Assembly: GCF_030705305.1 (NCBI RefSeq)
Contig: NZ_JAUZEE010000002.1
Span: 152,374-216,373, forward strand
Length of the DNA stretch: 64,000 nucleotides
Source of the DNA: Leptothrix discophora
GTDB taxonomy: Bacteria > Pseudomonadota > Gammaproteobacteria > Burkholderiales > Burkholderiaceae_C
Reading direction: 5' to 3'
How positions within the stretch are numbered: position 1 is the stretch's first letter; each line of letters starts with the position of its first letter. Both the position numbers and the translations under genes were made by a program. The notes beneath the pieces are model-generated. The model worked only from the letters and a program-made list of their open reading frames with translations. It ran no database searches and was not told where the DNA came from. Below, piece by piece: positions 24,091 to 36,845 of this stretch.

Positions 24091-25201
24091 TCGCGCGGAC
24101 GACCGGGCGCCATGCGCCCGGCCAGATTTAAGCCTGAAGTTTTTCTTAAGCTTAAGAAGTCCCCCCTCCTGGGGTGCGCAACGACGGGATGTCGACGCGC
24201 GGACCACCTGGGTGAGGGCGGACCCGCCCGAGAGGCGGGCGCAGGTTGATCCCCGGCCGGGCGGGATCGGCTGTCCATGACAGCGGCCGATTCGGGTGAA
24301 TGTGCTCAGTTGAAATGGGTGATATGGCCCTGTCGCGGTGATTTCACCCGAAAGCCTGCCGTCGGCCGCCTGTCGGGTGATCGATGGGCCATCAACGGGC
24401 CATCCACGGGCGGTGAGCGCGCGCGACCACGGCACCTCTGGTGCAGTCGGGCGACGGCGGCCTTGTCGCACTTGCACTTGCCTGGCATGCGTCAACCCCT
24501 GGGGTGCAGGGGGTGGGCCCGACAACATCGTGACGAAGGTCGCGCCGGTTGCCGCCGATCGGCCTCATTCCTTCGACAGGCCACGCGCTTTCGACCTTGC
24601 TGTCCTGGGTGCACGCATAAAAAAGGCCTGCTTCCCTCGGTGCGGCCGTCGAGAACTGACAAAAGTCAGTTCATTTGTCATTAGCACAATTCATTAATAG
24701 AGACTGAATGAAAGTGGCCGAGGTGCAACGAAGGGCATCGGATGTAGAACGACTTTTGTGACTTTTGCACGGCCGATTTCGCGTTTTGCCGATTTTGGCA
24801 TCTCTGCGGATTCTGGATAGATGGGTTGATTTCCCATGAATGAACGGTTTCGACCGGGATCACGCGGTGGTGTTTCACGCCCCACCCAGGTGGGTGTCGA
24901 TTCCGTCACGTTCCGGCAGGTCTGAAGGGTCCCGGTTGATGGGTGCTAAGCCCCAGCAGGTCGTTCCCGCTTGGGGCTGGGTCGGTGATTGAAGTCCAGG
25001 CGCCGCACTTGTATTGTTCAGCCCATCGAACTTAAGAAGATTTACTTAACGACGGGCCGCTGGTTGCACGCAGATGCAAGCCGTCGGTGGCGTCGGTAGG
25101 TCTCCTGAAGAGAGACGTGACCAGAACGAGGGCGGCCAGGGTTCAGGACCAGAGGAACCAGCCGGGAAGCGAGCACAAGTCATCCAATGAAGGGAACTGC
25201 C
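24091..25201 (+). promoter_or_regulatory. 1.1-kb non-coding region upstream of multicopper oxidase 1
   Basis: No credible gene is visible. The region holds a 16-bp palindrome at 24143, a small hairpin with 8-bp arms at 24653-24672, and from about 24680 a segment that aligns with the region upstream of the second oxidase gene. Shared words are TGCAACGAA at 24724, CGCACTTGTAT at 25004, CTTAAG at 25031 and TTGCA at 25064, all at nearly the same distances from the start codon as in copy 2. A perfect inverted repeat TTGCA-N6-TGCAA lies at 25064-25079. The leader ends in AGGGAACTGCCATGAA, giving a good ribosome binding site for the ATG at 25202. Confidence 0.7.
24143..24158. promoter_or_regulatory. 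16-bp perfect palindrome TTCTTAAGCTTAAGAA
   Basis: A perfect AT-rich palindrome made of two CTTAAG words, 53 bp after the NYN stop codon. CTTAAG also occurs once in each oxidase leader (25031 and 33789) and should be rare in a genome of this GC content. It could be the stem of an NYN transcript hairpin or a protein-binding site. Confidence 0.4.
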
Positions 25202-28099
25202 ATGAACGAAACCAAGATGCCGGAGCCGTCCGTCACCGCGACCCCGCGGCGGCGGGGCGCGGCACTGCCGGCGTGGACGCGCCGCGGGGCCTATGTCCTC
25301 GGCGCGCTGGGCGCCGCTTCGCTGTCGGTCGCCGTGACCGCCCAGGTCGCGGTGGACTATTGGGGCGATCCGCCCGACACGGACACCTCGGCCTATGTCG
25401 AGCCGGCGATCGGCCCGGTGGCCAACGACGCGCTGAAGACGGCCGAGCACACCAACCATTCGTCCTTCGAGGGCACCGCCAACGACGCCAAGGCCGACGT
25501 GTTCGTCGAGACCTCGGTGCCGCTGACCGCTCAGACCGGCAATGCGATCCCGACCGGCGGCCGCCCCAGCCCGTTGTTCAGCGCGACGGACTGGAGCTTC
25601 CCGCTGCTGATGTTCGAGGAGTTCGCGCCGCAGAAGCTCGATGCGACCGTCGACACCAGCAACTACAAGGGCTTCCCCGCGCCGACCCTCGGCCCGGCCC
25701 CGGCCCAGCACCCGACGAAGATCACCCGCAGCGCCCCGTCGGCCTCGGCGATCGAGAGCTTCCTGGGCCAGCCGGGCATCAAGCCCTACCCGGCCAACCA
25801 CGCGAACACCTTCGACCGCAACCCGTGGAATGCGGTGGCCTCGGAGTTCATCGGCCGCACCATCGACGGCCCGGCCGAAGGTCGCCCGCCCGGTGAAGGC
25901 TGGGCCCACCAGCGCTGGAACGAGTTCTTCCCGCAGACCTACTTCCAGACGGTCCAGGGCACCTCGCGCGTGAACCTCGGCGTGCGCGACAAGTGGCAGC
26001 GCCACGGCTACCAGGACGGCACCGAGTTCGGTCCGAACGGCCTGTACGCCAAGCCGGCCGGCCCGACCGGCAAGACCGGCACCACCAACGGCATCGACGT
26101 CCGTTTCCACCCGGGCCTGCCGGCACAGCATGCCGGATCGGTCTGGACCTTCGACGGCACCATGCCGCCGAAGCTGCTGCAGGTGCGGTATGGCGAGGGC
26201 GTGGTCATGCGCCACTACAACGGCCTGCCGGTCGATCCGGCCGCCAACAAGGGCTTCGGCCTGCACACGATCTCGACCCACCAGCACAACGGCCACAACC
26301 CGGCCGAGTCCGATGGCGTCGCGCAGGCCTTCTTCTTCCCCGGCCAGTTCTACGACTACCACTGGCCGATCCAGCTGGCCGGCTACGACACCATCAACAC
26401 CGGTGCGACCGACCCGCGCGCGGGCTACCCCTGCGTGCCTGGCGAGACCCTGTACGTGAACGACGCGGCGGCCGGTGCCAAGACCTGCCCGGCCGACGGC
26501 GTGATCCGCATCCGCGGTGACTGGCGCGAGACCGCCAGCACGCTGTGGTTCCACGATCACATGCTCGATTTCACCGCGCAGAACGTCTACAAGGGCAACG
26601 CGGCGATGATGAACCTCTACAGCGCCATCGACCGTGGCAACGAGTCGTTCAACTGCCACTACAACGACCCGGTGGCCGCCGACCCGACCAAGGTCCCGAA
26701 GAACGTCAACCTGTGCCTGCCCTCGGGCAACAAGCTGTCCTGGGGCAACCGCGACTACGACATCAACCTCGTGATCTCGGACAAGGCCTGGGACCGCCAG
26801 GGCCAGCTGTGGTTCAACGTGTTCAACAAGAACGGTTTTCTCGGTGACCGCCTCCTGACGAACTTCGTCTACCACCCCTACCTGGACGTCCGCAACCGCC
26901 GCTACCGCTTCCGCATCCTCAACGGCGGCGTGTCGCGCTACCTGTCGGTGGCCCTGGTCAAGCAGATCCCCAAGGGCAGCAAGACGCCCGGCGAGTTTGC
27001 CGGCGTCAACGGCGTGACCTACACGGCCATCCCGTTCCACATGATCGGCAACGACGGCAACCTGATGGAACACGCCATCGCGTTCGACGGCAAGGCCGAC
27101 CTGGACGGCAACGGCAACGCCAGCGAGCACAAGGGCACGCTGCCGCAGCAGGCCATCGCCGAGCGCTACGACATCGTGGTCGACTTCTCGAAGAACGGCG
27201 TCGTGCCGGGTGACAAGCTGTACTTCGTCAACCTGCAGGAACATGCCTCGCCCGAGAAGACCAGCCGTCGCGTGGCCCTGGCCGACGTGCTGTCCGGTCG
27301 CTACAAGCCGACCACCAAGGACGACAACGGCGACGGCGTGGCCGACCGCTGGGTCAACGGCGACCCGGCCGTGGGCCAGTTCATGGAGCTGCGCGTCAAG
27401 CCCATGGCCGCCGGCCAGGTCGACACCAGCATGGACCCGGCGAAGTACGTCGAGGGCAAGCTGAAGATGATTCCGCTCAAGCTCGACCGCACGTCCAAGA
27501 TCGACTACGCGGAGAAGCTGAAGAACGCCAAGCACCGCACCTTCTCGTTCGGCCACAGCGGTGGCACCGATGACCAGCCCTGGACGGTGAAGACCGACGG
27601 CGGCGACGGCTACAACGCCGACATGCGCCGGATCTCGGCCGCGCCCAAGCTGTCGGTCAACCCGACCGCCGGTGGCTCGGTGCAGAGCGACTCGCCCTAC
27701 GAGATCTGGTACCTGGAACTCGGCGGTGGCTGGGACCACCCGGTCCACATCCACTTCGAGGAAGGGATCATCCTGCGCCGCAACGGCAAGCTGCCGCCGG
27801 CCTGGGAGAAGTACGCCCGCAAGGACGTCTACCGCATCGGTGGTGACCTGCATGCCGGGTCGTCGGTCGAGATCGCGCTGCAATTCCGCGAGTTCGCCGG
27901 CACCTTCGTCGAGCACTGCCATGCGACCCAGCACGAGGACAACGCGATGCTGCTGCGCTGGGACATCGAGCGCGCCGGCCAGACCCTGGCGATGCCCACG
28001 CCGATGCCGACCTGGGACGGCGTTCACTACACCGGCTCGGCTGCGCTGACCACGTTCCGCTCGGGTCTGGGAACCGGCCCGACCTACACCCTGCCGTGA
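25202..28099 (+). CDS. Large multicopper oxidase, paralogue 1
   Basis: The ATG at 25202 (MNETKMPEP) is chosen over one five codons upstream because AGGGA sits 7 bases before it and the same leader precedes copy 2. The product has 965 residues. Residues 26-50 form a Tat-like signal (TRRGAYVLGALGAASLSVAVTAQ). Copper motifs are complete: HQHNGH at 360-365, HDH at 451-453, HPVHIHF from 846 and HCHATQH from 905 with Met916 as probable type 1 axial ligand. A DxNxDGxxxD calcium-type loop is at 707-715. It is far longer than CopA/CueO enzymes (about 500-600). Periplasmic or exported oxidation of a metal ion such as Mn(II) is a reasonable inference; phenol oxidation is an alternative. Confidence 0.9.
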   Translation: MNETKMPEPSVTATPRRRGAALPAWTRRGAYVLGALGAASLSVAVTAQVAVDYWGDPPDTDTSAYVEPAIGPVANDALKTAEHTNHSSFEGTANDAKADVFVETSVPLTAQTGNAIPTGGRPSPLFSATDWSFPLLMFEEFAPQKLDATVDTSNYKGFPAPTLGPAPAQHPTKITRSAPSASAIESFLGQPGIKPYPANHANTFDRNPWNAVASEFIGRTIDGPAEGRPPGEGWAHQRWNEFFPQTYFQTVQGTSRVNLGVRDKWQRHGYQDGTEFGPNGLYAKPAGPTGKTGTTNGIDVRFHPGLPAQHAGSVWTFDGTMPPKLLQVRYGEGVVMRHYNGLPVDPAANKGFGLHTISTHQHNGHNPAESDGVAQAFFFPGQFYDYHWPIQLAGYDTINTGATDPRAGYPCVPGETLYVNDAAAGAKTCPADGVIRIRGDWRETASTLWFHDHMLDFTAQNVYKGNAAMMNLYSAIDRGNESFNCHYNDPVAADPTKVPKNVNLCLPSGNKLSWGNRDYDINLVISDKAWDRQGQLWFNVFNKNGFLGDRLLTNFVYHPYLDVRNRRYRFRILNGGVSRYLSVALVKQIPKGSKTPGEFAGVNGVTYTAIPFHMIGNDGNLMEHAIAFDGKADLDGNGNASEHKGTLPQQAIAERYDIVVDFSKNGVVPGDKLYFVNLQEHASPEKTSRRVALADVLSGRYKPTTKDDNGDGVADRWVNGDPAVGQFMELRVKPMAAGQVDTSMDPAKYVEGKLKMIPLKLDRTSKIDYAEKLKNAKHRTFSFGHSGGTDDQPWTVKTDGGDGYNADMRRISAAPKLSVNPTAGGSVQSDSPYEIWYLELGGGWDHPVHIHFEEGIILRRNGKLPPAWEKYARKDVYRIGGDLHAGSSVEIALQFREFAGTFVEHCHATQHEDNAMLLRWDIERAGQTLAMPTPMPTWDGVHYTGSAALTTFRSGLGTGPTYTLP
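26205..26360 (+). repeat. 156-bp tract identical to oxidase copy 2
   Basis: Read base by base, this tract is identical to 34957-35112 in the second oxidase gene, including third codon positions. It covers the first copper motif (HTISTHQHNGHNP). Confidence 0.85.
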
Positions 28100-28193
28100 T
28101 CGAAGTCCCGCAAGGGGCCTGATCGAAGCCTGTCCTGCTGGCCGTCCCGACGGTTTGCAGGGCAGGATGCTCGAGGCGGCGCCACGGCGTCGC

Positions 28194-28242
28194 CTCGTTT
28201 CCATTGGGGGCCCTCGCACGCCAGGCCCCCAACGGAAACGAG
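28194..28242. terminator. Long hairpin between oxidase 1 and the SCO gene
   Basis: Two 19-base arms (28194-28212 and 28224-28242) pair with a single mismatch around an 11-base loop. No T-run follows, so it may be a processing or partial termination structure that sets the ratio of oxidase to SCO-cytochrome transcript. Confidence 0.55.
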
Positions 28243-28295
28243 CGGCAGCATCGACTGCCCGGACCCTCTGACGCAGACACAGGCCGTACCGCAAC

Positions 28296-29369
28296 ATGAA
28301 TCCCTGGATCCGACGCATCTCCCTCATCGGCGGCATCGCGGTGGTGGCCAGCATCGCCACGACGGTGGTGCTGGCGCAGCGCACGCCGCCGGCTTCTGCG
28401 TCACCGGCATCCGTGTCACCCGCTTCCGCGTCACCGGCATCCGCACGGGCCGTCGTCAAGCTCGACGACGACGGCGGCCAGGTCTGGGGCGCCAGCTACT
28501 TTCCCAACACCGTGCTGACCGACCAGTTCGGCCGCAAGCACCGCTTCTTCGAGGACCTGGTCAAGAACAAGGTCGTCGCGATCAACACCTTCTTCACCAG
28601 CTGCTCGGCCTCCTGCGGCCTGGAGACCGCGCGCATGCGCGAGGTCCAGTTGCTGCTGGGCGACCGGGTCGGCAAGGACGTCTTCTTTTACTCGATCACG
28701 ATCGACCCGCTGACCGACACGCCCGAGGAAATGAAGAAGTACGCCGACCGCTACCAGGCCGGGCCGGGTTGGCTGTTCCTGACGGGCAACGTCAAGGAGA
28801 TCGAGCAGATCCGCCGCAAGATCGGCCTGTTCGACGACGAGGACCTGAAGAACCCGAACCCGAACGACCACCGGCTGCACTCGGTCATCGGCAACCAGAA
28901 GACCGGCCGCTGGATGCGCGCCTCGCCGTTCGAGAACCCGACGATCACCGCGACGCAGATCGGCTCCTGGCTGCACAACTACAAGGCCGCGCCGTCGGCC
29001 GAGACCCGGTTCGAGCTGGCCCCGCAGATCCTGCGCAACCCGTCGGCCGGCGAGAAGCTGTTCCGCACCCGTTGTGCCTCCTGCCACTCGGTCAACGCGG
29101 CCGACCAGTCGATGGCCGCACAGCAGAAGATCGGCCCCAACCTCGACGGCATCGGCAAGCGCCGCCCGCGCGACTGGCTGGAGAAGTGGGTCAAGGCCCC
29201 GGACCGCATGATTGCCGACAAGGATCCGATCGCGCTGGCCGTCTACAACCAGTACAACAAGATCACCATGCCCAACATGCGGCTGGAGATGAAGGAAGTG
29301 CGGGAGGTGCTCGACTTCATCGACGAGGAGAGCGCCCTTCCTCAGAACGACCGCCGGATCAAGCAATGA
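28296..29369 (+). CDS. SCO1/SenC copper chaperone fused to cytochrome c
   Basis: The product has 357 residues. An uncleaved or cleavable hydrophobic N-terminus (6-27) is followed by an Ala/Ser/Pro linker (31-51) made of near-repeats. The SCO thioredoxin-like domain spans about 65-230 and has the copper-binding Cys103-xxx-Cys107 (CSASC) and His192/His195 in NDHRLHS. The C-terminal class I cytochrome c domain carries the heme site CASCH (260-264) and a candidate axial Met325 or Met328 in ITMPNMRL. SCO proteins deliver Cu to copper enzymes. Its position 196 bp after a multicopper oxidase suggests copper loading of, or electron acceptance from, that oxidase. It may instead serve cytochrome oxidase. 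Confidence 0.9.
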   Translation: MNPWIRRISLIGGIAVVASIATTVVLAQRTPPASASPASVSPASASPASARAVVKLDDDGGQVWGASYFPNTVLTDQFGRKHRFFEDLVKNKVVAINTFFTSCSASCGLETARMREVQLLLGDRVGKDVFFYSITIDPLTDTPEEMKKYADRYQAGPGWLFLTGNVKEIEQIRRKIGLFDDEDLKNPNPNDHRLHSVIGNQKTGRWMRASPFENPTITATQIGSWLHNYKAAPSAETRFELAPQILRNPSAGEKLFRTRCASCHSVNAADQSMAAQQKIGPNLDGIGKRRPRDWLEKWVKAPDRMIADKDPIALAVYNQYNKITMPNMRLEMKEVREVLDFIDEESALPQNDRRIKQ

Positions 29370-29375
29370 TCCGAG

Positions 29376-29405
29376 CCCGGACCTCGCGGAGACGCGAGGT
29401 CCGGG
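29376..29405. terminator. Bidirectional terminator hairpin
   Basis: A perfect 13-bp GC-rich stem (29376-29388 and 29393-29405) with loop GAGA lies between the convergent SCO-cytochrome and mutL genes. No clear T-run on either side. Confidence 0.6.
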
Positions 29406-29409
29406 TGTC

Positions 29410-31407
29410 TCAGCGGCCCCTGAGGAAGAGCGCGTCCAGCTCCTTCATCGTCACCTGACGCCAGGTCGGGCGGCCGTGGTTGCAGAGGTCGGCGCGGTCG
29501 GTGGTTTCCATGTCGCGCAGCAGCGCGTTCATCTCGTCGAGCGTGAGCCTGCGGTTGGCGCGCACGGCGCCGTGGCAGGCCATGGTGGCGAGGATCTCGT
29601 CGTGGGCGCGCTGGACCAGGGTGCTGGCTTCGCCGGTGTCGGACTGGCCCAGCTCGGCCAGCACCGAACGGGCCAGCGCGACCGGATCGGCATCGCGCAG
29701 CGCGGCCGGGCGCGAGCGCAGGGCCAGCACGCCCGGCGACAGCGGGCTCAGGTCCAGGCCGAGCTGGGCCAGCGTCGCGGCATGGACCTCGGCGGTGGCG
29801 ACCTCGGTGGGCGTGGCCGCGAAGGTCGCCGGGATCAGCAGCGGCTGGGCCTGGATGCCCGCTGGCGCGTCGCGTTCACCCGGTTCGACGGCACCGCGCC
29901 GCTCGGCGAAGTCGCGCTTGAGGCGCTCGTAGACGATGCGCTCGTGGGCCGCATGCATGTCGACGATGACCAGTCCGCGGCGGTTCTCGGCCAGGATGTA
30001 GGCCCCGCCCAGCTGCGCCAGCGCACGACCCAGCGGCCAGGCCTCGTCGGGATCGACCGGGGCCGATGCGATCCCGGTCGGCAGGCCGCCGGGTGCGTAG
30101 CCGGCAGCTGGCTCAGCGACTGAGCCACCGGGCGAAGGGCCCGTTCCGGTCGGGCCTGTCGGCGATCGACCTTCCGCAACCGGGTGGCCCCAGGCCCGCG
30201 GCGGCACCGGCTGGCCGTAGAGCGCACCGGCCTCCTGCAAGGCCAGCGCGCCCTGCACGCGCGGCATCGCCGTGGGCTGCCATGCCGGGTAGGACCGCGC
30301 GGCGGCCGGCATGCCCGCCGCTGGCACGCCCAGGCTGGCCGCGACGCCGGCATCGGCCGGCTGCGCAGACCCTTCGTCCGCGCTGCGCGAGACCGCGATC
30401 GCGGCCTCGACCGCGCGGCGCAGGGCCTGGTGGACCTCGCGCGAGTCGCGGAAGCGCACCTCGGCCTTGGTCGGGTGGACGTTGACGTCGACCCGCTCGG
30501 GCGGCATCTCCAGGAACAGCACGTAGCTGGGCTGGCGCTGGCCGTGCAGCACGTCCTCGTAGGCCGAGCGCACGCCGTGCGCGACCAGGCGATCGCGCAC
30601 GTGGCGACCGTTGACGTAGGCGTACTGCAGGTCGGCGCGGGCCCGGGCGGCCTCGGGCAGGCCGACGCGGCCGACCAGACGCAGCGGCCCGGCCTGCGAC
30701 CCGACCGGCCGGCTCGCGGCGATGAAGTCCGCACCGAGCACGTCGGCGATGCGCTGTTCGGACGTGGCCGCGCGCCACTGCTCGACCAGCCGGCCCTCGT
30801 GCCAGACCGCGAAGCCGACCTCGGGCCGCACCAGCGCATGGCGGCGCACGGCGTCCAGGCAATGCGCCAGCTCGGTGGCGTCGGTCTTGAGGAACTTGCG
30901 CCGTGCCGGGGTGGCGTAGAACAGCTCGCGGACCTCGACGGTGGTGCCGACCGCGCGCGCCGCCGGGCTCAGCTCGCCGGTCCGGGCGTCGATGCGCATG
31001 GCATGCGGCTGGCCGGCATGGCGGCTGGTGATGCTCAGTTCGGCGACCGAGGCGACCGCCGCCAGCGCCTCGCCGCGAAAGCCCATCGTGCCGACCTGTT
31101 CGAGGTCGAGCAGGCTGTGGATCTTGCTGGTGGCATGGCGGCGCAGCGCCAGCGGCAGCTCGTCGGCGGGGATGCCGGCGCCGTCGTCCTCGACGCTGAT
31201 GCCGCGCACGCCGCCGGCGGCCAGGCGCAGCGTGATCTGGCACGCGCCGGCGTCCAGCGCGTTGTCCAGCAGCTCGCGCACGACCGAGCCGGGACGCTCG
31301 ATCACCTCGCCGGCGGCGATCTGGCTGATCAGCTCGTCGGGCAGCTCGCGGATCGGTCGGCGGGCAGGGAGGGCGGCGCGGGCGGCCGGTCCGTCGGGCA
31401 GGTTCAT
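29410..31407 (-). CDS. mutL: DNA mismatch repair protein MutL
   Basis: The product has 665 residues. The GHKL ATPase domain is at the N-terminus, with ELISQIAAGEVIERPGSVVRELLDN, VEDDGAGI and GFRGEALAAVASV. A Pro/Gly-rich linker precedes the C-terminal dimerisation domain. The endonuclease motif appears as DMHAAHERIVYE (consensus DQHAxxExxxxE, with Met for Gln), and the accessory motifs ACHGAVRAN and CNHGRPT are present, so a nicking MutL is likely. It couples MutS mismatch recognition to strand incision. It ends against the convergent SCO-cytochrome gene; the next upstream gene starts a separate unit. Confidence 0.95.
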   Translation of the reverse strand: MNLPDGPAARAALPARRPIRELPDELISQIAAGEVIERPGSVVRELLDNALDAGACQITLRLAAGGVRGISVEDDGAGIPADELPLALRRHATSKIHSLLDLEQVGTMGFRGEALAAVASVAELSITSRHAGQPHAMRIDARTGELSPAARAVGTTVEVRELFYATPARRKFLKTDATELAHCLDAVRRHALVRPEVGFAVWHEGRLVEQWRAATSEQRIADVLGADFIAASRPVGSQAGPLRLVGRVGLPEAARARADLQYAYVNGRHVRDRLVAHGVRSAYEDVLHGQRQPSYVLFLEMPPERVDVNVHPTKAEVRFRDSREVHQALRRAVEAAIAVSRSADEGSAQPADAGVAASLGVPAAGMPAAARSYPAWQPTAMPRVQGALALQEAGALYGQPVPPRAWGHPVAEGRSPTGPTGTGPSPGGSVAEPAAGYAPGGLPTGIASAPVDPDEAWPLGRALAQLGGAYILAENRRGLVIVDMHAAHERIVYERLKRDFAERRGAVEPGERDAPAGIQAQPLLIPATFAATPTEVATAEVHAATLAQLGLDLSPLSPGVLALRSRPAALRDADPVALARSVLAELGQSDTGEASTLVQRAHDEILATMACHGAVRANRRLTLDEMNALLRDMETTDRADLCNHGRPTWRQVTMKELDALFLRGR

Positions 31408-31452
31408 CGACCGGATTCTAGGGAGCGGCCTCCGCCGGCCTGCCGCTTGGGG

Positions 31453-32577
31453 TCAGCGCAGGTAGCGTCCGCCCGGCCCGATCTGGACCAGCTCGACCAG
31501 GCGCGATCCGGCCGGTTCGCCGCGCTGGAAGTCGATGTCCATGCCGGCCAGCGAGAACTTCAGCCCGGCCAGCTGATCGCGCAGCGCGCGGCGCTGGACG
31601 CGCGGGCCGACCCGCCGCATCGCCTCGATCAGCACCTGGGCGGTCAGGTAGCCCTCCAGGCTGGCGTAGCCGACGCGCACCTGGGCCGGCTCGCAGGCGC
31701 GGCGGTAGTCGCTCAGCGCGGGCTGGGCGTCGCTCCAGGGGTAGGGCACCACCTGGGTCACGACCAGTCCTGCGGCGCGCTGGAGGCCGCCCTCGATCAG
31801 GGCCTCGCCGCCGCCCATCGACATCGCGTACAGGGCCGGGTGACGGCGCAGCGCGCGGACCTGGTCGATCAGGCCGAGCACCTGGTGCGCCGGCAGGGCC
31901 AGCAGCAGCGCCTGCGGGTCCAGCGCGATCAGCTTGCGGGCGGCTTCCTGCAGCGTCGCGGGGTCGTCGGTGACGCTGGCCTGCGCCAGCGGCCGCATGC
32001 CACGGTCGACCAGCGTGGCGGACAGCACGCCGGCCGCCGCATTGCCGTCCGGGCCGCTGCGGCTGACCAGCGCGACGCGGCTCAGGCGCAGCGTGCCCAG
32101 GTGGCGCACCAGCGCATCGGCCTCGCGGGCCTGGGTGGCGCGGACATGGAACTGCCAGCCCGGCAGCTGCTCGCGCTGGCGGTCCTGCAGCGACAGCGCG
32201 CCCACGCAGGGCGCCCGGCCGTCGGCGGGAATTTGGGCCAGCGCCGCCTGGCAGGCCGCGCCGACCGGTCCGAGCCAGGCCGCGAAGGCGGGCTCCGAGC
32301 CCAGCCGCTGGGTCTTCACCGCGAGCATCTCCGGCGCCAGGCCGCTGCTGTCGATGCGGGCCCAGCGCAGCTTGCGGCCGCCGATGCCGCCGCGCGCGTT
32401 GGCGCCGTCGATCGCGAGCTTCATCCCGGCGAGCTGCTCATGGCAGGCCGAATCGAGCAGCGCGCCCTGCGGGCCGATCTGCCCGATCACCAGCTCGCCG
32501 GCGTCGGCCGCCTGCCCTGGGCGGTGGGCCAGGGCGGGCAGGACGACGGCGGACCGGAGCAGCGAGCGGCGTTGCAT
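31453..32577 (-). CDS. ABC-type substrate-binding protein (LivK-like, Periplas_BP_6)
   Basis: The product has 374 residues with a short signal peptide (MQRRSLLRSAVVLPALAHRPGQA). The body has the branched-chain amino acid receptor fold, seen in VIGQIGPQGALLDSACHEQLAGMKLAIDGANARGGIGGRKLRW near the start and KFSLAGMDIDFQRGEPAGSRLVELVQIG at the end. It binds a small solute in the periplasm, possibly an amino acid or amide. No permease or ATPase genes are beside it, so it may be an orphan receptor. It lies 45 bp before mutL on the same strand. Confidence 0.8.
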   Translation of the reverse strand: MQRRSLLRSAVVLPALAHRPGQAADAGELVIGQIGPQGALLDSACHEQLAGMKLAIDGANARGGIGGRKLRWARIDSSGLAPEMLAVKTQRLGSEPAFAAWLGPVGAACQAALAQIPADGRAPCVGALSLQDRQREQLPGWQFHVRATQAREADALVRHLGTLRLSRVALVSRSGPDGNAAAGVLSATLVDRGMRPLAQASVTDDPATLQEAARKLIALDPQALLLALPAHQVLGLIDQVRALRRHPALYAMSMGGGEALIEGGLQRAAGLVVTQVVPYPWSDAQPALSDYRRACEPAQVRVGYASLEGYLTAQVLIEAMRRVGPRVQRRALRDQLAGLKFSLAGMDIDFQRGEPAGSRLVELVQIGPGGRYLR

Positions 32578-32702
32578 GAGCGAAGGCGGGAGGACGGACC
32601 GCCAGTGTGCGTGCCCGATGTGGAAGGCCGATGGCCCGAATCGGCAAATTGTCGCAATCTGTGACGGGATGTACGGAAATGTCGCCCCGGATAATCCCGG
32701 CC

Positions 32703-33353
32703 ATGGAAATCCTCGCCGTCCTCTTCGACTTCGTGCTGCACGTGGACCAGCACCTGGCCCAGTTCGTGGGTGACCACGGCGCGTGGATCTACGCCTTGCT
32801 GTTCTTGATCATCTTTGTCGAGACCGGCGTGGTCGTGATGCCTTTCCTGCCGGGCGACTCGCTGCTGTTCGTGGTCGGCGCGCTGTGCGGCGTCGGTCTG
32901 ATGAGCCTGCCGCTGGCCATGGCGCTGCTGCTGCTGGCGGCGGTGCTGGGCGACCAGCTGAACTACACGATCGGCCGCTCGATCGGGCCGCGCGTGTTCC
33001 AGTGGGAGAAGTCGCGGTTCTTCAACCGCGATGCCTTCCTGCAGGCCCACGCCTTCTACGAGCGTTACGGCGGCATCACCATCGTGATCGCCCGCTTCAT
33101 GCCCTTCGTGCGCACCTTCGCGCCCTTCGTGGCCGGGGTGGCCGACATGACGCGCAGCAAGTTCGTCGCCTACAACGTCGCCGGCGCGGCGCTCTGGGTG
33201 GTCGGCCTGACCGGTGCGGGCTACCTGTTCGGCAACGTGCCCTGGGTGCAGACCCACCTGAGCAAGATCATCTGGGGCTTCATCCTGATCCCCGGCCTGA
33301 TCGCGCTGTTCGGCGCCTGGAAGGCCCGCCGCCAGGCGACCGCCCAGGCCTGA
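32703..33353 (+). CDS. DedA-family membrane protein
   Basis: Starting at the ATG at 32703 (MEILAVLFDFVLHVDQHLAQFV), the product has 216 residues and about five hydrophobic segments. DedA motifs are visible: FVETGVVVMPFLPGDSLLFVVGAL near 42, LLAAVLGDQLNYTIGRSIG, and RFMPFVRTFAPFVAGVADM in the middle. These are the E/D and R residues linked to proton-driven lipid carrier recycling in the family. The earlier in-frame ATG codons lack family similarity. It may help recycle undecaprenyl phosphate, which would serve the polysaccharide pathway, but this is general knowledge of the family. Confidence 0.9.
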   Translation: MEILAVLFDFVLHVDQHLAQFVGDHGAWIYALLFLIIFVETGVVVMPFLPGDSLLFVVGALCGVGLMSLPLAMALLLLAAVLGDQLNYTIGRSIGPRVFQWEKSRFFNRDAFLQAHAFYERYGGITIVIARFMPFVRTFAPFVAGVADMTRSKFVAYNVAGAALWVVGLTGAGYLFGNVPWVQTHLSKIIWGFILIPGLIALFGAWKARRQATAQA

Positions 33354-33383
33354 GCGGCGGCGCCGCGCCGCACGGCCCTGGAA

Positions 33384-33401
33384 CCGACGCGGGAGCGTCG
33401 G
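33384..33401. terminator. Hairpin after the DedA gene
   Basis: CCGACGC and GCGTCGG pair in a 7-bp stem with loop GGGA, 30 bp after the DedA stop codon. No T-run; weak support as a terminator. Confidence 0.4.
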
Positions 33402-33959
33402 CGGGGCGGGCTCCCCTGCTTGCGTTCAGACAGTTTTCATCAGCGCAGTTTCTTAATGCTGACTGAATCGTGGTGGATGTCTTGCAACGAAAAACGTCTG
33501 GTGTAGCCGTTCTTCTGTGATTTCCACACGTCCGGGGGTCGACTTTGCCGGTTCTGAAGAATTCTTCAGTTCCGGCATTCTGGGTTTATTTCCCACGAGT
33601 TGGACAGAAGTGGGACAAATGCGCGGTCAAGTTCCGCACGTGACCCGTTTGGTGTGACTTTCTTGGCGTCGGGAGACGCCTGGCTCCCCTCTGTTGCTGG
33701 GTTATTTGGCCCATGCAACGGCGCCCGGCTGGGCGCTTTTGGGCGATTGCTGAGGGGCGGCCGCACTTGTATGGTTCGGTCCACGGACCTTAAGACTTCT
33801 TTCATCGACGCCTCTTTCTGTTGCATCCAGATGCGGCATGCCGCGCGTACGAAGAAGCAACGCTGAAGTGAATTCCGACCCACTCCCAGGGTTGAAGTCG
33901 TTTCAGTTCAGAACGAGACGGTCGAAGACGACCTGAGCCATCCATCGGAGGGAACTGCC
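33402..33959 (+). promoter_or_regulatory. Leader region of multicopper oxidase 2
   Basis: A non-coding region that aligns with the region upstream of oxidase 1. TGCAACGAA is at 33483, CGCACTTGTAT at 33762, CTTAAG at 33789 and TTGCA at 33821. Distances between these words differ by at most 1 bp from copy 1, and CGCACTTGTAT lies exactly 198 bp before the ATG in both. Two hairpins are present: GGCGTC/GACGCC at 33665-33680, and GCGCCC/GGGCGC at 33721-33736 followed by TTTT. The ribosome binding site is AGGGA before ATG 33960. The promoter probably lies near CGCACTTGTAT, but I cannot place -35/-10 with confidence. Confidence 0.7.
33721..33740 (+). terminator. Terminator-like hairpin inside the oxidase 2 leader
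   Basis: A 6-bp stem GCGCCC/GGGCGC with loop GGCT followed directly by TTTT on the plus strand, 22 bp before the conserved CGCACTTGTAT word. It may insulate the promoter from read-through of the DedA gene or act as an attenuator if transcription starts further upstream. Confidence 0.45.

Positions 33960-36845
<2,886 letters not shown>

What the first reader, a model, noticed from the sequence alone, without database searches (positions are those of the whole stretch)
25202..36845. Paired giant multicopper oxidases around a SCO1-cytochrome c fusion
Two 961-965-residue oxidases with all four copper motifs and Tat-like signals lie in the same stretch; the first is followed by a SCO-cytochrome c fusion that could supply Cu and take electrons. 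They are much larger than CopA/CueO enzymes. Established knowledge: bacterial Mn(II)/Fe(II) oxidation can involve large multicopper oxidases such as MofA in Leptothrix and MnxG in Bacillus. Linking this locus to metal oxidation is inference.
Basis: partly seen in the sequence, partly recalled or inferred. Interest (0 to 1): 0.85.

Follow-up and report, generated by a model that had tools for sequence, protein, structure and literature searches.

The report
Duplicated McoA-type manganese oxidase genes
A bacterium related to Leptothrix and Sphaerotilus carries two copies of a gene for a large copper enzyme of the kind that Pseudomonas uses to oxidise manganese, one of them paired with its usual copper-delivery protein, so it is a real and testable but recognisable manganese-oxidation locus.

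Summary
MCO1 (25202-28099, 965 aa) and MCO2 (33960-36845, 961 aa) are 81% identical; a SCO1/SenC-cytochrome c fusion starts 196 nt behind MCO1. They are not one operon (mutL, a periplasmic binding protein and dedA lie between) and not MofA-type (24% in pieces to the MofA-like enzyme of the same genome).

They belong with McoA, a genetically shown Mn(II,III) oxidase of Pseudomonas putida GB-1: P. putida-group relatives at 55-57% identity sit in the published mcoA operon, and published primers flanking mcoA bracket 10 of them. Copper, SCO and haem ligands are invariant in the relatives aligned; SCO follows in 50 of 79 loci.

Of 13 genomes of the genus, the same 3 have McoA and a MopA-like peroxidase; MnxS/MnxR-like regulators occur in these and one more. 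A 32-nt promoter-like element precedes the four mcoA genes found in those genomes and was not found elsewhere in them. The duplication is about as old as the split from Sphaerotilus mobilis; MCO1 evolved faster in protein.

mcoA in this group is already published, so this is a new member of a known kind. Mn oxidation by these proteins is inference.

The parts
25006..25037 (+). Promoter-like element CACTTGTATnGTTCrGn9CTTAAGA (TTGTAT-17 nt-TTAAGA), ending 164 nt before the MCO1 start
   Evidence: Found by comparing upstream regions; 4 matches with up to 3 mismatches in 13 genomes, one before each of four mcoA genes; mean 0.00 expected in window shuffles
25202..28099 (+). MCO1: McoA-type multicopper oxidase, 965 aa, the copy that changed faster in protein
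28296..29369 (+). SCO1/SenC-cytochrome c fusion, 357 aa; SCO Cu ligands C103, C107, H192; haem C260, C263, H264 and M325
33764..33795 (+). Second copy of the promoter-like element, ending 164 nt before the MCO2 start
33960..36845 (+). MCO2: McoA-type multicopper oxidase, 961 aa, the copy closer in sequence to the single S. mobilis McoA (854 of 961 residues); no SCO gene found beside it

Best explanation
MCO1 and MCO2 are two paralogous McoA-type Mn(II)/Mn(III) oxidases of a Sphaerotilus-Leptothrix bacterium. Each is an exported four-copper enzyme: a substrate electron (best guess Mn(II), then Mn(III)) enters at the type 1 copper (H846, C906, H911, M916) and passes through the His-Cys-His bridge to the trinuclear centre, where O2 is reduced to water; Mn oxide forms outside the cell. 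The SCO domain of the partner protein binds copper (C103, C107, H192) and loads the oxidases; its fused cytochrome c most likely keeps the SCO thiols/copper reduced, with electron acceptance from the oxidase as the alternative. Both genes are transcribed from their own copy of the same promoter, and MCO2 uses the one SCO protein in trans. Shown here: gene structure, ligand conservation, family membership by sequence, synteny and tree, the McoA-SCO pair in most relatives, co-occurrence with other Mn-oxidation-type genes, the shared upstream element. Inferred: substrate, export route, copper transfer, role of the cytochrome, transcription from the element, division of labour between copies. The assignment of ligands to the copper sites is from established knowledge of multicopper oxidases.
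For: (1) 79 relatives from named genomes at 54-79% best-segment identity (a capped list of the best). (2) A GGDEF-EAL gene lies downstream in 14 of 79 loci, all 14 with the SCO gene by the script's rule. L030 and L025 show the order MCO, SCO-cytochrome, GGDEF/EAL, phosphonate-binding protein, and L025 a phage integrase next: the GB-1 mcoA operon as listed in PMC11409713 Table 4. (3) Published primers flanking GB-1 mcoA (PMC5906577) bracket this MCO in 10 of 79 loci at up to 4 mismatches each, 9 of these 10 being among the 14. (4) Histidine kinase genes of one cluster lie near 12 of 79 loci and sigma-54 response regulators of one cluster near 11, both in 8 (type checked by Pfam for L072), as mnxS/mnxR flank mcoA in DSV-1 and MS-1. 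(5) A SCO gene lies directly downstream in 50 of 79 loci, 47 with both domains. (6) In 13 genomes of the genus, An_peroxidase genes are in the same 3 that have the 960-aa McoA. A kinase matching at least 360 of 497 residues of the L072 kinase is in 4 of 13: these 3 plus G303, which has a shorter relative of McoA. All 6 fetched kinases have a regulator 44-51% identical to that of L072 beside them, sigma-54 type in the 4 checked. (7) The promoter-like element was found only before mcoA genes. (8) A GB-1 strain with McoA as the only one of its three Mn oxidases oxidised Mn(II) and Mn(III) (PMC5906577 abstract and passages).
Against: No activity data for these proteins. Identity to P. putida-group McoA is only 55-57%, and the tree puts the window lineage with Thermodesulfobacteriota, Myxococcota and gammaproteobacterial relatives, not inside the Pseudomonas clade; several of those lineages are largely anaerobic (recalled), so the family may do more than oxidise Mn with O2. 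The GB-1 McoA sequence itself was not at hand. The sigma-54 site that is strong before P. putida-group mcoA is not significant before MCO1 or MCO2 (29 and 85 of 200 shuffles). 25 of 79 loci have room but no SCO hit by the rule (one of them, L063, does have a SCO on an overlapping ORF), so SCO is not obligatory. Co-occurrence among 13 congeners is confounded by kinship. The structure model of MCO1 is of middling confidence (pLDDT 62.6, pTM 0.76). S. [quoted passage not shown]
Confidence: 0.68

Rival explanations
1. The pair are ferroxidases: extracellular Fe(II) oxidation (or a role in iron-oxide redox) is the main function, and Mn oxidation is secondary or absent.
For: The Sphaerotilus-Leptothrix group oxidises iron, and S. 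[quoted passage not shown] Family members occur in Geobacter and Desulfuromonadales MAGs; in G. sulfurreducens another MCO, OmpB, is needed for reduction of Fe(III) oxides (PMC5566968 passages).
Against: The genetically tested relative that the syntenic evidence reaches (P. putida McoA) acts on Mn(II) and Mn(III); a MopA-like peroxidase gene and MnxS/R-like regulators co-occur with it in the genus.
Confidence: 0.14
2. They are laccase/bilirubin-oxidase-like phenol oxidases, for instance acting on aromatic compounds or cross-linking sheath polymer.
For: The closest solved structures by sequence and by fold are bilirubin oxidase and CotA. A polysaccharide gene cluster lies upstream here, and polysaccharide genes lie upstream in S. 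mobilis and G299.
Against: More than 400 residues longer than those enzymes and 14-22% identical in the 50 fold matches listed. PhsA, CueO and FtsP NCBIfam models score far below cut-off. CotA of Bacillus pumilus itself is reported to have Mn oxidase activity (PMC3618234, title and start of abstract in a search listing), so this fold does not exclude Mn.
Confidence: 0.1
3. They are periplasmic cuprous oxidases for copper resistance (CopA/CueO-like).
For: MCO fold; a partner with copper-binding SCO ligands.
Against: CueO equivalog model 65 and 74 bits against a cut-off of 525; no CopA/PcoA model among the hits up to E 0.01. The neighbours identified (mutL, binding protein, dedA, NYN gene, polysaccharide genes) include no Cu-resistance gene; not every neighbouring ORF was scanned.
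Confidence: 0.04

Closest known systems
McoA (PputGB1_2665) of Pseudomonas putida GB-1 and its operon mcoA-SCO1/SenC-GGDEF/EAL-phosphonate-binding protein-integrase
   Same: Homology over nearly the whole length, 55-57% to the syntenic P. putida-group proteins, all copper ligands, SCO1/SenC gene directly downstream of MCO1.
   Different: No C-terminal extension (P. putida-group proteins 1130 aa against 961-965); mutL rather than GGDEF/EAL, phosphonate-binding and integrase genes behind the SCO gene; no significant sigma-54 site, instead a sigma-70-like element; two copies; candidate regulators on other contigs.
McoA of the Sphaerotilus-Leptothrix group (S. mobilis; L. cholodnii SP-6; 'Group 2' of PMC13386937)
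   Different: One copy each; between dedA and queG S. mobilis has only about 2.06 kb, too little for an extra oxidase gene.
MofA (Leptothrix discophora) and its mofABC operon
   Same: Multicopper oxidase proposed to oxidise Mn in the same bacterial group; its operon also has a cytochrome protein and, in some relatives, a SCO/copper chaperone gene (PMC8218464, PMC5566968 passages).
   Different: The MofA-like enzyme here is 1645 aa; the longest piece of similarity is 24%; FKBP and CxxCH partners. The window's genome has such an operon on another contig, G000 C3.
SCO1/SenC-cytochrome c protein PP3183 of Pseudomonas putida (PDB 2l4d, cytochrome domain)
   Same: Cytochrome domain matches residues 250-350 with E 2e-27, 44% identity in the fold match.
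   Different: The function of PP3183 was not established by any search here.

Membership tests
McoA-type Mn oxidase | Homology over the whole length to mcoA-operon proteins of the P. putida group | tested here: met
   57% identity of MCO1 to L030 and L040 in A3; that these are mcoA rests on operon order and on primers bracketing the gene in 10 of 79 loci (L030 among them)
McoA-type Mn oxidase | Four copper motifs, 10 His + Cys + Met | tested here: met
   Invariant in 38 of 38 rows of A4
McoA-type Mn oxidase | SCO1/SenC gene immediately downstream | tested here: met
   Met for MCO1 (196 nt); not met for MCO2. In relatives 50 of 79
McoA-type Mn oxidase | MnxS/MnxR-type two-component system in the genome | tested here: inconclusive
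   Two kinase + sigma-54 regulator pairs in G000, 33% and 46-49% identical to those of L072, on other contigs than mcoA; orthology to GB-1 MnxS/R rests on L072's gene order and was not shown directly
McoA-type Mn oxidase | Sigma-54 promoter before mcoA | tested here: not met
   Best sites before MCO1 and MCO2 reached in 29 and 85 of 200 shuffles; 0 of 200 for L030 and L040; of 17 upstream regions tried, 6 were reached by at most 3 shuffles, so relatives vary too
McoA-type Mn oxidase | Mn(II)/Mn(III) oxidation lost on deletion or shown with purified protein | not testable with these tools
   Needs bench work
MofA | About 1650-aa MCO with mofB (FKBP) and mofC beside it | tested here: not met
   965/961 aa; 24% in the longest piece to the MofA-like enzyme of its own genome; directly behind lie SCO-cytochrome and mutL for MCO1
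CueO / CopA copper oxidases | NCBIfam equivalog score above cut-off | tested here: not met
   CueO model 65 and 74 bits, cut-off 525; no CopA model among the hits
MnxG | Sequence membership | not tested
   No MnxG sequence was at hand

The most novel reading that the evidence does not exclude
The SCO-cytochrome c fusion is not only a copper chaperone but the electron outlet of McoA: metal-derived electrons pass from the oxidase to the cytochrome domain and on to the respiratory chain, so that Mn (or Fe) oxidation conserves energy or runs without O2. The two paralogs would then be split, the fast-changing MCO1 next to the fusion being wired to it and the conserved MCO2 remaining an O2-reducing oxidase.
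Probability: 0.12. Interest if true: 0.85.

Novelty: new member of a known kind. Interest (0 to 1): 0.47.

Why it matters
Which enzyme oxidises manganese in the Leptothrix group is argued largely from MofA. Here one genome holds a MofA-like operon, two McoA genes and a MopA-like peroxidase, so single and combined deletions could settle it. The SCO-cytochrome c partner is a testable copper-loading or electron-transfer factor for a Mn oxidase, and the 32-nt upstream element gives a handle on when the oxidase is made. If both copies turn out to be Mn oxidases, their unequal divergence offers a natural pair for finding what sets activity.

Tried and rejected
MofA reading: rejected, 24% in the longest piece. 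One-operon reading: rejected, three unrelated genes lie between and both oxidases have their own upstream element. A SCO remnant behind MCO2: none found by blastn in 1355 nt. Recent duplication: not supported; fourfold-site differences are MCO1-MCO2 96/430, MCO2-S. mobilis 113/468, MCO1-S. mobilis 109/416, against 0.18-0.31 for five other window genes and S. mobilis (mutL 86/367). Recent arrival of MCO2 from the S. mobilis lineage: not supported, for the same reason. Sigma-54 control: not significant (single-base shuffles). RNA structure in the 164-nt stretch before MCO1: z 0.81, none. The upstream element in the other 78 loci: none on the + strand besides L013 at up to 6 mismatches. Paper searches for the fusion: one search gave 0 papers; two searches listed 3 and 6, none seen to treat it in the listings or in the passages read of two of them.
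Full report
What is there. Searches confirm two long ORFs on the + strand, MCO1 25202-28099 (965 aa) and MCO2 33960-36845 (961 aa), each matching Pfam Cu-oxidase_2 and Cu-oxidase_3, and a SCO1-SenC plus cytochrome c fusion at 28296-29369. MCO1 and MCO2 are 81% identical. Between the fusion and MCO2 lie mutL (-), a Peripla_BP_6 gene (-) and a DedA-family gene (+). The layout is therefore an oxidase-chaperone pair, a block of unrelated genes, and a lone second oxidase.

Copper and haem ligands. In 38 aligned oxidases (2 from the window, 36 of 79 relatives) the ten His, the Cys and the Met expected for a complete four-copper enzyme are invariant. In 30 aligned SCO-cytochrome fusions (1 + 29 of 47) the SCO ligands C103, C107, H192 and the haem ligands C260, C263, H264 and M325 are invariant. 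Which residue serves which copper is from established knowledge of MCOs. AlphaFold2 gives pTM 0.76 but mean pLDDT 62.6 for MCO1; its best fold matches are CotA and bilirubin oxidase, 14-22% identical in the 50 listed, with TM-scores of 0.31-0.37 by the query's length. The fusion model (pLDDT 80.0) matches SCO1 structures and the cytochrome domain of P. putida PP3183, 2l4d.

Family. A scan of named genomes returned 79 loci with relatives at 54-79% best-segment identity (the call reports that more exist, so this is the best-scoring set and not a census). By my count of the titles 55 of 79 are Pseudomonas; others include Sphaerotilus mobilis, Ramlibacter, Rhodocyclaceae, Holophagaceae, Thiothrix, Geobacter/Desulfuromonadales, Syntrophobacteraceae and Myxococcota. 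The P. putida-group members are McoA on three counts. First, L030 and L025 show the published mcoA operon order of GB-1; the GGDEF-EAL gene is downstream in 14 of 79 loci, all with the SCO gene. Second, the published primers that flank the GB-1 mcoA deletion bracket the gene in 10 of 79 loci with up to 4 mismatches each; 21 of 79 have at least one such primer site, a few of them misplaced, and 10 shuffled primer pairs gave 0-5 sites over all 79 loci. Third, in the more distant Pseudomonas locus L072 the oxidase and SCO gene are followed by a histidine kinase and a sigma-54 response regulator, which matches the mcoA-SCO-mnxS2-mnxR part of the order described for Pseudomonas MS-1 and DSV-1 (PMC11409713 passages); members of these two gene clusters lie near 12 and 11 of 79 loci, both near 8. 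The GB-1 McoA sequence itself was not at hand.

Pairing with SCO. By the script's rule (SCO hit on the same strand within 400 nt of the oxidase end) 50 of 79 loci have it, 47 with both domains; 4 have no room before the contig end; 25 have room but no hit, of which L063 is a miscount (SCO on an overlapping ORF). In a separate clustering the SCO family is found in 47 loci, each time downstream and on the same strand. The loci without SCO fall mainly in one Pseudomonas clade. More distant relatives of about 730-780 aa in a Comamonadaceae, Paraburkholderia, Fuscovulum and Limimaricola also have the SCO-cytochrome fusion downstream, in the Comamonadaceae with one small gene between; Skermanella has a SCO without the cytochrome.

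Not MofA, not CueO. The genome has a separate 1645-aa MCO followed by FKBP, a 652-aa protein with one CxxCH (no Pfam hit) and SCO1, like the mof operons described in PMC8218464 and PMC5566968 (passages). MCO1 matches it only in pieces, 24% in the longest. CueO scores 65 and 74 bits against a cut-off of 525.

Genomic company. Of 13 genomes of the genus, own included, 3 (G000, G299, G301) have the 960-aa McoA and G303 has a relative of about 740 aa. An animal haem peroxidase is found in the same 3 of 13; in G000 it carries RTX repeats, as described for MopA (PMC9765421 passages). A kinase matching at least 360 of the 497 residues of the L072 kinase occurs in 4 of 13 (G000 twice, G299, G301 twice, G303); the other 9 have only shorter matches in the kinase core. 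Each of the 6 has beside it a regulator 44-51% identical to that of L072, of sigma-54 type in the 4 checked. Shared ancestry of these genomes could produce the same pattern. In the wider family, 1 of 298 other genomes drawn had a match at E up to 1e-30, a 735-aa relative; by handle numbers that draw did not include S. mobilis or G299.

Upstream element. Comparing upstream regions gave CACTTGTATnGTTCrGn9CTTAAGA, which contains TTGTAT and TTAAGA 17 nt apart. It ends 164 nt before both start codons in the window, 169 nt before the S. mobilis gene and 125 nt before the longest ORF in G299. With up to 3 mismatches it occurs 4 times in the 13 genomes, once before each of these four mcoA genes, and the reversed control pattern 0 times. 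On the + strand of the other 78 loci it is absent at up to 6 mismatches. It reads as a sigma-70-type promoter; that is inference. The sigma-54 site that is strong before P. putida-group mcoA (0, 0 and 3 of 200 shuffles for L030, L040, L025) is not significant before MCO1 or MCO2 (29 and 85 of 200), and relatives vary. I saw no mention of the element or of the duplication in the passages read of papers found; whole texts and supplements were not read.

Duplication. Protein identity is 778/959 for MCO1-MCO2, 854/961 for MCO2-S. mobilis and 765/960 for MCO1-S. mobilis, while fourfold sites differ by 0.223, 0.241 and 0.262; five other window genes compared with S. mobilis give 0.181-0.309, mutL 0.234. 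So the duplication is about as old as the split from S. mobilis, and MCO1 has changed faster in protein. The tree (quick method) joins MCO2 to S. mobilis with 92% SH-aLRT, MCO1 outside, G299 outermost. By neighbours it is the reverse: the S. mobilis gene sits beside the NYN gene and SCO as MCO1 does, and the dedA-queG block of S. mobilis has no room for an oxidase. Faster change of MCO1 at the ancestral place is the simplest account; an older duplication with loss in S. mobilis is not excluded. Multiple copies occur elsewhere too (three in a row in P. jinjuensis L056, two in L068).

Mechanism. Shown: complete ligand sets, recurrent pairing, family. From the literature (abstracts and passages): a GB-1 strain with McoA as the only one of its three Mn oxidases oxidises Mn(II) and Mn(III) (PMC5906577), and McoA is described as less efficient than and complementary to MnxG (PMC11930936). 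Inferred: that the window's enzymes do the same, that SCO loads copper, that the cytochrome domain supplies reducing power to SCO or, less likely, takes electrons from the oxidase. Relatives in lineages that are largely anaerobic (recalled) suggest that the family has uses beyond O2-dependent Mn oxidation.

Standing. mcoA has been reported in L. cholodnii SP-6 (PMC11412304 and PMC13386937 passages) and, within the Sphaerotilus-Leptothrix group, in Group 2 and one outlier (PMC13386937). The present locus is a new member of that kind, with a duplicated gene, the SCO-cytochrome partner and a specific upstream element as the added points.

Noticed in passing
window 2838-22887: Polysaccharide cluster (glycosyltransferases, Asn_synthase genes, EpsG, flippase, Wzz, Poly_export/SLBB, UDP-sugar dehydrogenase), G+C falling to 0.47-0.49 at 8-14 kb. 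Polysaccharide genes also lie upstream of mcoA in S. mobilis (L013) and G299 (L102), a possible link to sheath or capsule.
   Followed up: partly
L018:9914-14728: In Ramlibacter monticola the McoA-type oxidase is fused in one 1604-aa ORF to a di-haem CCP_MauG peroxidase domain.
   Followed up: partly
L009:3186-11501: Paraburkholderia gene order CCP_MauG, PKD protein, 732-aa MCO, SCO-cytochrome c, again linking a MauG-type enzyme to this oxidase group.
   Followed up: no
L010:7815-18076 and L011:1-10945: Two Rhodobacterales plasmids carry the MCO and SCO-cytochrome c pair within a few genes of a very large 'peroxidase family protein', a possible MopA-like neighbour.
   Followed up: no
L104:9598-12218 (G000 C28): A third, 631-aa MCO of the same genome overlaps or adjoins a SCO1/SenC ORF on the same strand.
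   Followed up: no
L056:9896-19696; L068:9348-16171; L087:9914-20523: McoA-type genes in three tandem copies (P. jinjuensis), two (Syntrophobacteraceae) and two on opposite strands (L087).
   Followed up: no
L030:10022-13414, L040:9971-13366: P. putida-group McoA is about 1130 aa, with a C-terminal extension that the window proteins lack, and has a sigma-54 site starting 86-90 nt upstream.
   Followed up: partly
L036, L087 and relatives: A Pseudomonas clade of McoA-type oxidases mostly lacks the SCO gene; a gene cluster whose L036 member is YceI-like lies downstream in 11 of the 79 loci.
   Followed up: no
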